This document shows, piece after piece, positions 11,890 to 20,277 of a stretch of DNA of 64,000 nucleotides. The notes under the pieces are model-generated. The model saw only the letters and a program-made list of their open reading frames with translations, did not search any database and was not told the DNA's origin. Made by a program: the position numbers and the translations under genes. Position 1 is the first letter of the stretch; the number at the start of each line of letters is the position of its first letter. The DNA comes from Oscillospiraceae bacterium (lineage in GTDB: Bacteria > Bacillota > Clostridia > Oscillospirales > CAG-382), in NCBI GenBank assembly GCA_015064485.1, contig SVSD01000003.1, positions 1 through 64,000 on the forward strand. Reading direction: 5' to 3'.

Positions 11890-11907
11890 CTGTTAAAATA
11901 TTAACGA
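11890..11907. promoter_or_regulatory. Candidate Rex (NADH/NAD+) operator
   Basis: CTGTTAAAATATTAACGA vs clostridial Rex consensus TTGTTAANNNNTTAACAA. Confidence 0.5.
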
Positions 11908-11986
11908 AGATAAGAGAGCGACAAAATCTCTCTAAAAACAACAATATTTTATTAAAACGGTTAATCAAAAACAGGAGGATAATAAA

Positions 11987-14692
11987 ATGGACAACATGAA
12001 TTACGCAATCGTAGACAGCGTAGAAAAGCTTGAAGAAGCAATTGCGCGTACAAGAGCGGCACAGAAGATTTTCGCTACCTACACACAGGAACAGGTAGAT
12101 AAGATTTTCCTTGCGGCTGCTTCTGCTGCAAACAAGGCAAGAATACCCCTTGCAAAGATGGCTGTTGAAGAAACAGGTATGGGCGTTGTTGAAGATAAGG
12201 TTATCAAAAATAACTATGCTTCCGAATATATCTACAACGCTTATAAAAACACAAAGACTTGCGGAATTATCGAAGAGGATAAGGCCCACGGCTTGAAGAA
12301 GGTTGCAGAACCCATCGGTGTTGTTGCGGCTGTTATTCCTACAACAAACCCCACATCTACTGCAATTTTCAAATGTCTTCTTGCACTTAAGACAAGAAAT
12401 GCAATTATTATTTCTCCTCACCCCAGAGCAAAGAACTGTACAATCGCAGCTGCAAAGCTCGTACTTGAAGCGGCAGTTAAAGCAGGCGCTCCCGAGGGAA
12501 TTATCGACTGGATCGATGTACCCAGCCTTGAAATGACAAACACAGTTATGAAGGAAGCAGATATTATCCTTGCAACAGGCGGTCCCGGTATGGTTAAGGC
12601 AGCTTATTCTTCCGGCAAGCCCGCTCTCGGCGTTGGTGCAGGTAACACTCCCGCAATCATCGACGACAGCGCAGATATCCTTCTTGCAGTTAACTCTATA
12701 ATCCATTCCAAGACATTTGATAACGGTATGATCTGTGCATCCGAACAGTCGGTTATCGTTCTTGAAAACATATATGATGCTGTTAAGACAGAATTTGCAA
12801 CAAGAGGCTGCTACTTCCTCGACGAAGCAGAAACAGAAAAAGTAAGAAAGACAATCATCATAAACGGCGCTCTTAACGCTAAGATAGTCGGTCAGCCCGC
12901 TGCAAAGATTGCAGAACTTTCCGGCGTTACTGTTCCCGAAGGAACAAAGATCCTTATCGGCGAAGTTGAATCGGTTGACATTTCCGAAGAATTCGCTCAC
13001 GAAAAGCTTTCTCCCGTTCTTGCTATGTACAAGGCAAAGACTTTTGAAGAAGCTCTTGATAAGGCAGATAAGCTTGTTGAAGACGGCGGATTTGGTCACA
13101 CATCATCCGTATACCTCAACGCTGTTACCGAAACAGAAAAGATAAACAAATTTGCTGAAAGAATGAAGACTTGCCGTATTCTTGTAAACACACCTTCCTC
13201 TCACGGCGGTATCGGTGATCTTTACAACTTCAAGCTCGCTCCCTCGCTTACTCTCGGATGCGGTTCTTGGGGCGGAAACTCGGTTTCTGAAAATGTCGGC
13301 GTAAAGCATCTTATCAATATCAAATCGGTAGCAGAAAGAAGGGAAAATATGCTTTGGTTCCGTGCACCTGAAAAGGTATATATCAAGAAGGGCTGTCTGC
13401 CTGTGGCACTCGACGAGCTCAAGAATGTAATGGGCAAGAAGAGAGCGTTCATCGTAACAGACAACTTCCTTTATGAAAACGGCTATACAAAGCCTATAAC
13501 AGATAAGCTCGATGAAATGGGCATCGTTCACACAACCTTCTTTGATGTACAGCCTGACCCCACACTTCACAACGCAAAGAGCGGTGCGGCTCAGATGGCA
13601 TCCTTCAAGCCCGATACAATCATCGCACTCGGCGGCGGTTCTGCTATGGACGCGGCGAAGATCATGTGGGTTCTTTATGAACATCCCGAAGCAGACTTTA
13701 TGGATATGGCGATGAGATTTATCGACATCAGAAAGAGAGTCTACACATTCCCCAAGATGGGCGAAAAGGCTTACTTTATCGCTATCCCCACATCCGCAGG
13801 TACAGGTTCTGAAGTTACACCTTTTGCTGTTATCACAGACGAATCTACCGGTGTTAAGTATCCCCTTGCTGACTACGAACTTCTTCCCAATATGGCAATC
13901 GTTGATACAGATTTCCATATGTCCGCACCTAAGGGACTTACAGCAGCTTCCGGTATCGACGCTGTAACACACGCAATCGAAGCATACGCTGCAATGCTTG
14001 CAACAGATTATACAGACGGTCTTGCGCTCAAGGCTCTTAAGACTGTATTTGAATATCTCCCCAGAGCTTACGACAACGGTCAGACTGATGTTGAAGCAAG
14101 AGAAAAGATGGCAAACGCTGCAACTATGGCTGGTATGGCATTTGCAAACGCATTCCTCGGCATCTGCCACTCTATGGCTCATAAGCTCGGTGCGTTCCAT
14201 CATTTGCCTCACGGCGTTGCAAACGCTCTTATGATCGAAGAAGTTCTCAGATTCAACGCTTCCGAAGCGCCTGCTAAGATGGGTACTTTCTCTCAGTACG
14301 ATCATCCTCATACACTTGCACGCTATGCTGAAGTTGCTGATTATCTCGGAATTAAGGGTAACAATGACACAGAAAAGCTCGAAGGTCTTATCAAGGCTAT
14401 AAACGACCTCAAGGCAAGAGTAGGTATCAAGGAAACTATAAAGGATTACGGTATTGACGAAAAGGTATTCCTTGAACAGCTCGACGAAATGGTTGAACAG
14501 GCGTTTGACGACCAGTGCACAGGTGCAAACCCCAGATATCCTCTTATGTCCGAAATTAAACAGATGTATCTCAATGCTTACTACGGCAAACATTTTGAAG
14601 AAAAGAAGATGCCCACAGCTGATGATATAAAATCCGATGTAAAGCCCGATGCTGTTAAGGCAACTTATAACAAGGGAAAGAAAAAAGCGTGA
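11987..14692 (+). CDS. adhE: Bifunctional acetaldehyde-CoA / alcohol dehydrogenase
   Basis: 901 aa; N-terminal ALDH (NPTSTAIFKCLLALKTRNAII..) and C-terminal Fe-ADH (GGGSAMDAAK, GICHSMAHKLGAFHHLPHG). Confidence 0.95.
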   Translation: MDNMNYAIVDSVEKLEEAIARTRAAQKIFATYTQEQVDKIFLAAASAANKARIPLAKMAVEETGMGVVEDKVIKNNYASEYIYNAYKNTKTCGIIEEDKAHGLKKVAEPIGVVAAVIPTTNPTSTAIFKCLLALKTRNAIIISPHPRAKNCTIAAAKLVLEAAVKAGAPEGIIDWIDVPSLEMTNTVMKEADIILATGGPGMVKAAYSSGKPALGVGAGNTPAIIDDSADILLAVNSIIHSKTFDNGMICASEQSVIVLENIYDAVKTEFATRGCYFLDEAETEKVRKTIIINGALNAKIVGQPAAKIAELSGVTVPEGTKILIGEVESVDISEEFAHEKLSPVLAMYKAKTFEEALDKADKLVEDGGFGHTSSVYLNAVTETEKINKFAERMKTCRILVNTPSSHGGIGDLYNFKLAPSLTLGCGSWGGNSVSENVGVKHLINIKSVAERRENMLWFRAPEKVYIKKGCLPVALDELKNVMGKKRAFIVTDNFLYENGYTKPITDKLDEMGIVHTTFFDVQPDPTLHNAKSGAAQMASFKPDTIIALGGGSAMDAAKIMWVLYEHPEADFMDMAMRFIDIRKRVYTFPKMGEKAYFIAIPTSAGTGSEVTPFAVITDESTGVKYPLADYELLPNMAIVDTDFHMSAPKGLTAASGIDAVTHAIEAYAAMLATDYTDGLALKALKTVFEYLPRAYDNGQTDVEAREKMANAATMAGMAFANAFLGICHSMAHKLGAFHHLPHGVANALMIEEVLRFNASEAPAKMGTFSQYDHPHTLARYAEVADYLGIKGNNDTEKLEGLIKAINDLKARVGIKETIKDYGIDEKVFLEQLDEMVEQAFDDQCTGANPRYPLMSEIKQMYLNAYYGKHFEEKKMPTADDIKSDVKPDAVKATYNKGKKKA

Positions 14693-18843: not shown

Positions 18844-18855
18844 GGAGAGTATGAT

Positions 18856-20277
18856 ATGAGAAAGTTTGATACAAAAGTACAATATCTCAAATATAAGGTT
18901 TTGCGCGAAGTGGCAAGACAGGCGTGGAATGATACTCTTCTTGAAAACATACTTGAAATCCCGAAAAACATCGTTCCGGGAAAAACTCCGACAATGCGAT
19001 GCTGTGTTTACAAAGAAAGAGCGATCCTTTCAGAGCGTGTGAAGATCGCAATGGGCGGAGACAAGGAAAACCCCAATGTTATTGAGGTAATTGATATTGC
19101 CTGCGATGAATGTCCGGCGGCGGGATTTGAAGTCACCGATTCCTGCCGGGGCTGTCTTGCACACAGATGCGAAGATGTTTGTAAAAAGGGAGCGATTTCC
19201 TTTGATCATAACCATGTGGCACATATAGATAAATCAAAATGTGTTGAATGCGGTATGTGTGCAAAGGTTTGCCCTTATTCTGCAATCGTAAACCGCAAAC
19301 GCCCGTGTCAGAACGCCTGCAAGATAAAGGCAATCTCAATAACCGAAGATAATGCGGCGGCGATAGACAACGAAAAATGCACATCCTGCGGGGCGTGTGT
19401 TTATCAGTGTCCTTTTGGTGCTATCACAGATAAATCATATATTTTAAATGTTATCGATCTTATTAAAAAGAGTGAAGATAACAAAAAATATAAGGTATAT
19501 GCTCTTGTGGCACCTTCCATATCCAGCCAGTTTACTTATGCAAAACTCGGTCAGGTAATTTCAGGCCTTAAAAAGCTCGGTTTCTTCACAGTAATCGAGG
19601 CGGCGCTCGGCGCTGATATGGTCGCTCAGGCAGAATCAAAAGAACTTGCGGAAAAAGGCTTTTTGACAAGTTCCTGCTGCCCTGCTTTCGTTTCATATGT
19701 AAAATCTACTTTCCCCCAGCTTCAGGAACATATCTCTCACAATCTTTCTCCTATGGCAACCCTTGCAAAATACATAAAAGAAAGCGACAAAGAAGCAAAA
19801 GTCGTATTTATCGGCCCCTGTACTGCTAAAAAGGCTGAAGCACAGCTTGAAAGTGTTAAGCCGTATGTTGATGCGGTTATGACATTCGAAGAGCTTCAGG
19901 CTCTTTATGACAGCCGTGATATTGATATCTGCGAACTTTGCGAGGATGTTCTTGATAATGCATCATATTTCGGAAGAATTTTTGCCCGTTCGGGAGGTCT
20001 TACCGATGCGGTGGTTCAGGCTCTTAAGGAACAGAACATCGATTTTGAAGTAAAGGCGGCAACCTGCGACGGTATCGAAGAATGTAAATTGGCACTTCTT
20101 AAAAAGAGCAAAAATGTCCTTGATGCAAACTTTATCGAAGGTATGGCTTGTGTCGGCGGATGCATCGGAGGCGCCGGCTGTCTTACTCACGGAGAAAAGA
20201 ATAAAGCCGAAGTGGATAAATACGGAAGGGAAGCTTTCGAAAAGACAATAAGTGACGCGGTATCGCTTCTGAAATAA
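18856..20277 (+). CDS. [FeFe]-hydrogenase, ferredoxin-type (HydA2-like / group B-like)
   Basis: Multiple [4Fe-4S] motifs; LTSSCCPAFVSYV / GPCTAKKAE / EGMACVGGCIGGAGC. Confidence 0.9.
   Translation: MRKFDTKVQYLKYKVLREVARQAWNDTLLENILEIPKNIVPGKTPTMRCCVYKERAILSERVKIAMGGDKENPNVIEVIDIACDECPAAGFEVTDSCRGCLAHRCEDVCKKGAISFDHNHVAHIDKSKCVECGMCAKVCPYSAIVNRKRPCQNACKIKAISITEDNAAAIDNEKCTSCGACVYQCPFGAITDKSYILNVIDLIKKSEDNKKYKVYALVAPSISSQFTYAKLGQVISGLKKLGFFTVIEAALGADMVAQAESKELAEKGFLTSSCCPAFVSYVKSTFPQLQEHISHNLSPMATLAKYIKESDKEAKVVFIGPCTAKKAEAQLESVKPYVDAVMTFEELQALYDSRDIDICELCEDVLDNASYFGRIFARSGGLTDAVVQALKEQNIDFEVKAATCDGIEECKLALLKKSKNVLDANFIEGMACVGGCIGGAGCLTHGEKNKAEVDKYGREAFEKTISDAVSLLK

What the first reader, a model, noticed from the sequence alone, without database searches (positions are those of the whole stretch)
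11890..20277. H2-sensing hydrogenase / ethanol operon: adhE-kinase-2x[2Fe-2S]-HydS(PAS)-PP2C-HydA2
Closely spaced co-directional genes for AdhE, a kinase-like protein, two small [2Fe-2S] proteins, a PAS-tailed [FeFe]-hydrogenase with atypical H-cluster motifs (EMSACAGSCIGG rather than the usual EGMACxGGCxxGGG-type motif), a SpoIIE/PP2C phosphatase and a second [FeFe]-hydrogenase. Established, from memory: Ruminococcus albus 7 has a comparable transcriptional unit (Aad, Ser/Thr kinase, phosphatase, hydS, hydA2) proposed to sense H2. Inference: kinase and phosphatase form an H2-responsive phospho-switch balancing ethanol against H2.
Basis: partly seen in the sequence, partly recalled or inferred. 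Interest (0 to 1): 0.75.

Follow-up and report, generated by a model that had tools for sequence, protein, structure and literature searches.

The report
Hydrogen- and redox-controlled ethanol operon
A gut bacterium carries the same gene cluster that Ruminococcus albus uses to switch between making ethanol and making acetate plus hydrogen; comparing several hundred related genomes suggests its transcription is set by the known redox repressor Rex, with the hydrogen sensor working through its partner phosphatase and the neighbouring kinase going mainly with the ethanol enzyme.

Summary
Positions 11987-20277 hold seven co-directional genes: AdhE, a kinase-fold phosphotransferase, two [2Fe-2S] proteins, a PAS-tailed [FeFe]-hydrogenase (HydS), a SpoIIE-type PP2C phosphatase and a second [FeFe]-hydrogenase. 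They are bounded by a conserved promoter and a strong terminator. It is the R. albus 7 pRUMAL01 cluster gene for gene (68-80% identity), minus a rex gene that R. albus carries between lysR and adhE. It is therefore a new member of a known kind (HydDB group C3, phosphatase-linked).

(1) The kinase belongs to the APH phosphotransferase family, not the Hanks Ser/Thr kinases. It tracks adhE more than HydS, and it is not an obligate partner of the phosphatase. (2) HydS and PP2C are the true pair: 76 genomes hold both, 5 only HydS, 2 only PP2C, and an 8-nt gene overlap is seen in 78 of 78 loci. (3) The conserved adhE promoter carries a canonical Rex (NADH/NAD+) operator in relatives lacking the cluster's own rex, plus a flanking lysR. 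So the 111-fold change of this cluster in R. albus need not be direct H2 sensing. (4) HydA2 is group B. H2 sensing, Rex binding and kinase targets are untested here.

The parts
10884..11807 (+). LysR-family regulator; conserved neighbour of the cluster
   Evidence: PF00126 E 2.9e-16. LysR lies upstream in 22 of 40 relatives with at least 6.5 kb upstream, and in 19 of the 20 adhE-containing ones. Present at the same place in R. albus, 60% identity.
11833..11850 (.). Palindrome GTTATCAAAATTGATAAC, candidate LysR site; relatives with a rex gene carry ATATCGATA-N7-TATCGATAT at the comparable place
   Evidence: Palindromes found. Binding protein not shown; inference from position about 65 bp upstream of the -10.
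11871..11899 (+). Promoter: TTCCCA, 17 nt, TAAAAT with extended -10 (TG)
   Evidence: both hexamers conserved in diverged relatives.
11890..11907 (.). Rex-type operator CTGTTAAAATATTAACGA overlapping the -10
   Evidence: 2 mismatches to TTGTTAANNNNTTAACAA. Same box at the same place in 12 of 14 adhE-first clusters lacking rex; null 10/600 random windows.
11987..14692 (+). adhE, bifunctional acetaldehyde-CoA/alcohol dehydrogenase
   Evidence: NF010378 1401 bits, cut-off 951
14715..15464 (+). APH-family phosphotransferase ('kinase'); catalytic HGDxxxxN and DW motifs conserved in 49 homologues
   Evidence: PF01636 58.1 bits against 23.2; PF00069 below cut-off; conservation
15490..15729 (+). Small thioredoxin-like [2Fe-2S] protein 1
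   Evidence: PF01257
15732..15992 (+). Small thioredoxin-like [2Fe-2S] protein 2
   Evidence: PF01257
15999..17678 (+). hydS, sensory [FeFe]-hydrogenase: 4Fe-4S ferredoxin domain, H-cluster domain, FeS domain, PAS-like domain, helical tail 521-556
   Evidence: PF02906 + PF04060. H-cluster cysteines C138, C185, C284, C288 invariant. Tail is the most conserved part, 0.95.
17671..18843 (+). SpoIIE-type PP2C phosphatase with an unassigned C-terminal region (about residues 225-390); start overlaps hydS by 8 nt
   Evidence: PF07228; model best match SpoIIE 5mqh, E 9.6e-14; overlap of 8 nt in 78 of 78 loci
18856..20277 (+). hydA2, group B monomeric ferredoxin-type [FeFe]-hydrogenase
   Evidence: TIGR04105 568.8 bits against cut-off 450; the R. 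albus homologue scores 577.4
20330..20363 (+). Intrinsic terminator closing the unit
   Evidence: 12-bp hairpin with T tail

Best explanation
This is a chromosomal copy of the Ruminococcus albus hydS-hydA2 ethanol cluster, one transcription unit from 11871 to 20363. Transcription is most likely governed by redox state. [quoted passage not shown] LysR is a probable second regulator. HydS is a second, protein-level sensor. Its H-cluster reads H2, its iron-sulphur domains and the two [2Fe-2S] proteins relay electrons, and the PAS-like domain and the very conserved helical tail control the PP2C encoded by the overlapping gene, in trans. By analogy with hfsB/hfsC genetics in Thermoanaerobacterium, HydS holds the phosphatase in check. 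The phosphotransferase is mainly an AdhE companion and not the phosphatase's fixed counterpart. Shown here: gene content, order and co-occurrence, promoter and operator conservation. Inferred: Rex and LysR binding, H2 sensing, the direction of HydS action on PP2C, and every phospho-target.
For: Gene-for-gene match to R. albus pRUMAL01, which has lysR-rex-adhE-phosphotransferase-Fd-Fd-hydS-PP2C-hydA2. The R. albus eight-gene cluster is 111-fold down in co-culture with an H2 consumer (PMC6776011). Rex box over the conserved -10 in 12 of 14 adhE-first relatives without rex (null 1.7%). The right half-site is kept in 13 of 15 adhE-first clusters against 2 of 19 Fd-first clusters (Fisher p 1.2e-5). 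The own genome has one Rex and a second Rex box 57 bp upstream of hydC of its hydABC operon. A rex gene sits beside or inside the cluster in R. albus, G056, G062, G008, G015, G017, G053 and G026, and in 14 of 40 well-covered named loci. HydS-PP2C: 76 both / 5 / 2, p 2e-62; an 8-nt overlap in 78/78; in G008, G015 and G017 PP2C is kept although unlinked. HydS tail 521-556 is 95% conserved against 74% for the PAS region. Deletion of hfsB raises ethanol and adhE expression, and hfsC and hfsD are needed (PMC5707799).
Against: No binding, expression or H2 data exist for this organism. R. albus itself has no canonical Rex box upstream of its rex gene (best 5 mismatches). Clusters that begin with the ferredoxin genes mostly lack the box, so Rex control is not universal. 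The left half of the box coincides with the extended -10, and the relatives compared are not phylogenetically independent. The PAS assignment is below Pfam cut-offs. The PP2C target is unknown, and the genome's only STAS protein is SpoIIAA, so no ready partner is visible.
Confidence: 0.6

Rival explanations
1. One reading: the kinase and the phosphatase act on a shared target as one H2-responsive phospho-switch that balances ethanol against H2.
For: Both genes sit in the same unit in the window, in R. albus and in many relatives; 33 of 107 kinase copies lie near HydS, 15 of them without adhE next to them. APH catalytic motifs are intact.
Against: Kinase and PP2C occur without each other in 79 of 124 genomes holding either. 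In the window's family they are independent (4/21 against 8/42). 46 kinase copies sit behind adhE with no HydS nearby. APH-family members usually modify small molecules (general knowledge).
Confidence: 0.15
2. HydS is the main transcriptional H2 sensor: HydS to PP2C to an unknown regulator (possibly the adjacent LysR) turns the operon on at high H2; Rex is secondary.
For: Proposed for R. albus (PMC6776011). hfsB deletion changes adhE expression in Thermoanaerobacterium (PMC5707799). lysR conserved upstream. PP2C strictly paired with HydS.
Against: No phosphorylation-dependent regulator is known or visible; LysR proteins normally respond to small ligands. The Rex operator and rex genes already explain an NADH-linked H2 response.
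Confidence: 0.25
3. HydS is a catalytic or electron-transfer hydrogenase working with the two [2Fe-2S] proteins rather than a sensor.
For: The proton-transfer cysteine (Cys137) is invariant in 82 homologues, whereas only 17% of sensory sequences keep it (PMC10055695); two redox proteins directly precede it.
Against: PAS-like domain plus the most conserved helical tail, translationally coupled to a phosphatase in all 78 loci. Homologue HfsB behaves as a negative regulator (PMC5707799).
Confidence: 0.12
4. The phosphatase feeds a SpoIIE/RsbU-type partner switch (anti-sigma kinase plus STAS protein).
For: SpoIIE-type catalytic domain. The hydABC operon of the same genome encodes two GHKL ATPases. 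In three genomes the PP2C gene sits beside spoIID-spoIIQ.
Against: The only STAS protein in the genome is SpoIIAA, beside SpoIIAB and SigF; none is encoded in the cluster.
Confidence: 0.08

Closest known systems
Ruminococcus albus 7 plasmid pRUMAL01 hydS-hydA2 cluster (NC_014824.1, RUMAL_RS17345-RS17385)
   Same: Same genes in the same order; identities AdhE 75, phosphotransferase 76, Fd 77 and 68, HydS 72, PP2C 79, HydA2 80, LysR 60%.
   Different: R. albus has a rex gene between lysR and adhE and lies on a plasmid; the window has no linked rex but has a canonical Rex box, and lies on a 149-kb contig with rnf and ribosomal-protein genes.
HydDB [FeFe] group C3, phosphatase-linked putative sensory hydrogenases (PMC5037454)
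   Same: H-cluster domain, C-terminal PAS-like domain, linked SpoIIE/PP2C phosphatase.
   Different: This clade keeps the proton-transfer Cys and has a near-invariant helical tail; HydDB classifier not run.
Thermoanaerobacterium hfsABCD (PMC5707799, PMC11837493)
   Same: HydS-type sensor, serine phosphatase and ferredoxin hydrogenase in one operon, with genetic effect on adhE and ethanol.
   Different: The four-gene operon holds no AdhE or phosphotransferase and has hfsA; direct sequence comparison not done here.
Clostridial Rex regulon (consensus TTGTTAANNNNTTAACAA, PMC8457756)
   Same: Operator over the promoter of an ethanol/hydrogenase operon; canonical Rex in the genome.
   Different: Control of HydS clusters by Rex was not mentioned in the papers read; binding untested.

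Membership tests
HydDB group C3 sensory [FeFe]-hydrogenase | H-cluster domain with four cysteine ligands | tested here: met
   PF02906 164.5 bits; C138, C185, C284, C288 invariant
HydDB group C3 sensory [FeFe]-hydrogenase | C-terminal PAS domain | tested here: inconclusive
   PAS_9 E 0.0021 and PAS E 0.0027, both below Pfam cut-off; strand/helix pattern 412-498 followed by a long helix in the model
HydDB group C3 sensory [FeFe]-hydrogenase | linked Ser/Thr (PP2C/SpoIIE) phosphatase | tested here: met
   PF07228; 76 of 81 HydS genomes hold the PP2C
HydDB group C3 sensory [FeFe]-hydrogenase | senses H2 | not testable with these tools
   needs purified protein
R. albus 7 hydS-hydA2 cluster | adhE-phosphotransferase-Fd-Fd-hydS-PP2C-hydA2 order | tested here: met
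R. albus 7 hydS-hydA2 cluster | rex gene inside the unit | tested here: not met
   none at the locus; the only Rex of the genome is on contig C2
R. albus 7 hydS-hydA2 cluster | repressed when H2 is removed | not testable with these tools
   published for R. albus only
Hanks-type Ser/Thr protein kinase (14715-15464) | PF00069 domain above cut-off | tested here: not met
   22.8 bits against cut-off 31.7; PF01636 APH 58.1 against 23.2
Group B [FeFe]-hydrogenase (HydA2) | TIGR04105 above cut-off | tested here: met
   568.8 against 450
Rex regulon | operator matching TTGTTAANNNNTTAACAA, conserved in relatives | tested here: met
   2 mismatches, 12 of 14 comparable relatives
Rex regulon | binding of Rex, NADH-sensitive | not testable with these tools
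   needs EMSA or footprint
SpoIIE/RsbU partner-switch module | SpoIIE-type phosphatase domain | tested here: met
   best structural match 5mqh SpoIIE
SpoIIE/RsbU partner-switch module | own STAS antagonist | tested here: not met
   one STAS protein in the genome, next to SpoIIAB and SigF

The most novel reading that the evidence does not exclude
The cluster is a two-sensor device. Rex (NADH/NAD+) sets transcription, while HydS with its overlapping-gene PP2C forms a split, H2-gated phosphatase, docked through the invariant tail KQMRxxQEIASLLGETxAETK, that acts after translation, and the APH-family enzyme is an AdhE-dedicated regulator. The ethanol/H2 choice would then be made at two levels by two different signals.
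Probability: 0.3. Interest if true: 0.65.

Novelty: new member of a known kind. Interest (0 to 1): 0.42.

Why it matters
Ethanol against acetate plus H2 in fibre-degrading gut bacteria sets how much H2 reaches methanogens. The published R. albus model credits direct H2 sensing by HydS. The comparison here shows that a conserved Rex operator, or a rex gene inside the cluster, offers a separate redox route to the same response, and that the kinase should not be assumed to oppose the phosphatase. That makes a clean genetic separation possible: rex against hydS against PP2C.

Tried and rejected
Kinase as a Hanks protein kinase: rejected by Pfam cut-offs. Kinase tied strictly to AdhE: seemed so in the window's family, but the named loci and the order survey showed copies next to HydS without adhE, so the claim was weakened to 'mainly'. 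Rex box as a mere -10 artefact: tested with the right half-site, which is conserved only in some classes. Classical partner switch: no dedicated STAS protein. RNA element in the leader: no Rfam match. Suspected 948-aa hydrogenase fusion in G016/G011: the gene in L033 is an ordinary 473-aa group B enzyme. C-terminal region of PP2C: the listed PDB fold matches gave no separate assignment for it. HydS model is only moderate (mean pLDDT 70.9, ferredoxin part poor), so no interface was inferred from it. Zheng et al. 2014 (the R. albus paper) is not held.
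Full report
OBSERVATION. The ORFs are present and intact at the stated coordinates, with domain assignments as listed under parts. Gaps are short; hydS and PP2C overlap by 8 nt, and that overlap is the same in 78 of 78 relatives where it could be measured. A sigma-70-like promoter with extended -10 lies at 11871-11899, a 12-bp hairpin terminator at 20330-20363, and the next gene (PRPP synthetase) has its own 12/12 consensus promoter. No internal terminator stands out above chance.

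IDENTITY. The search of plasmid records led to R. albus 7 pRUMAL01: LysR, Rex, AdhE, phosphotransferase, two (2Fe-2S) proteins, [FeFe] protein, SpoIIE phosphatase, [FeFe] hydrogenase. The window has the same order with 60-80% identity per gene and lacks only rex. From rex to hydA2 there are eight genes, which fits the 'eight-gene cluster' that falls 111-fold when Wolinella removes H2 (PMC6776011); that equation is my inference. HydDB calls such proteins group C3, phosphatase-linked, putative (PMC5037454). PMC6776011 labels the R. albus ferredoxin hydrogenase group A1, but both the R. albus protein (577.4 bits) and the window protein (568.8) exceed the cut-off of the group B model TIGR04105. 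Group B enzymes are active ferredoxin-coupled H2 producers in gut bacteria (PMC12578642).

WHICH GENES BELONG TOGETHER. In 63 genomes of the family, full-length HydS occurs in 19, and all 19 hold the PP2C; two further PP2C copies lie at contig ends. In three genomes PP2C is not beside HydS but is still kept, next to spoIID and spoIIQ. In 301 genomes of the order, HydS and PP2C: 76 both, 5 HydS only, 2 PP2C only. The phosphotransferase behaves differently. In the family it is in 12 genomes, directly 3' of adhE in every case where the upstream sequence is present, and 8 of the 12 have no HydS. In the order, 64 of 107 copies are directly 3' of adhE, 33 lie near HydS, 18 both. Among 40 named loci with at least 6.5 kb upstream, all 20 with adhE have the phosphotransferase, and 6 have it without adhE. 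Kinase and phosphatase occur together in 45 genomes and apart in 79. Genomes are related, so these are counts, not independent events.

PROMOTER. Aligning the lysR-adhE gap of the window with two relatives shows two conserved blocks, ATTCCCAAAC and TGTTAAAATAnTAAC, which are the -35 and an extended -10 inside a Rex-type palindrome. In 80 named loci, adhE-first clusters without rex carry a box with at most 2 mismatches in 12 of 14, against 10 of 600 random windows. The right half-site, which the -10 does not require, is kept in 13 of 15 adhE-first but 2 of 19 Fd-first clusters. Clusters with their own rex instead carry ATATCGATA-N7-TATCGATAT about 65 bp upstream of the -10, sometimes with a Rex box as well. 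The Clostridium consensus and the canonical NADH-relief logic of Rex are from PMC8457756. The own genome has one canonical Rex and a second box 57 bp upstream of hydC in the bifurcating hydrogenase operon.

SENSOR. HydS keeps the four H-cluster cysteines. Ser282 sits at the position I equate, from the EMSAC motif, with TmHydS S267, a residue that tunes H-cluster potential (PMC10055695). Unlike TmHydS it keeps the proton-transfer cysteine, found in 17% of sensory sequences but in all 82 here. Its last 36 residues are the most conserved part of the protein (0.95 against 0.79 for the H-domain) and are recognisable in a 39%-identical homologue. The model shows one long helix, a break at GET, and a second helix. 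With the fixed gene overlap and co-retention, the simplest reading is that this tail controls the phosphatase in trans.

MECHANISM AND DIRECTION. In Thermoanaerobacterium, deleting hfsB (HydS type) raises ethanol and adhE expression, and hfsC (phosphatase) and hfsD are required (PMC5707799); a later study attributes part of the effect to hfsD-linked H2 cycling (PMC11837493). I therefore propose that HydS restrains PP2C and H2 relieves this, with Rex setting transcript level. The direction and targets are inferred.

VERDICT. Real, well conserved and a new member of a known kind. The added value is a corrected wiring diagram: HydS with PP2C, phosphotransferase mainly with AdhE, Rex and LysR at the promoter.

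Noticed in passing
L054:4451-12831 (own genome contig C15): The bifurcating hydABC operon also encodes a PAS-less HydS-like protein with SSACP and ELNAC motifs (as in TmHydS at the proton-transfer position), a DRTGG protein, a PHP protein and two GHKL ATPases, one RsbW-like; possible kinase partners for the PP2C.
   Followed up: partly
L101:5407-6576, L102:2524-3690, L103:6601-7770: In three relatives the HydS-type PP2C gene has moved next to spoIID and spoIIQ while HydS stays elsewhere.
   Followed up: partly
L053:5891-10090 (G025): Decayed cluster: fragments of lysR, adhE, hydS and hydA2 in several frames, i.e. loss of the system in one relative.
   Followed up: no
L056, L057: HydS clusters on records labelled plasmids (R. 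albus pRUMAL01, Monoglobus pectinilyticus plasmid 16), suggesting mobility.
   Followed up: no
L152: A contig filed under a Methanocorpusculum (archaeal) bin carries lysR-rex-phosphotransferase-Fd-Fd-hydS-PP2C-hydA2 at 78% HydS identity; probably mis-binned.
   Followed up: no
window 22083-27756: A complete-looking rnf operon follows shortly after the cluster (ferredoxin:NAD+ link), separated from it by a PRPP synthetase gene.
   Followed up: no
window 59593-60375: ORF with the GNRDRTGTGFESHGILSPGRLPIPPLRH type sequence, probably a spurious ORF over tRNA or similar sequence.
   Followed up: no
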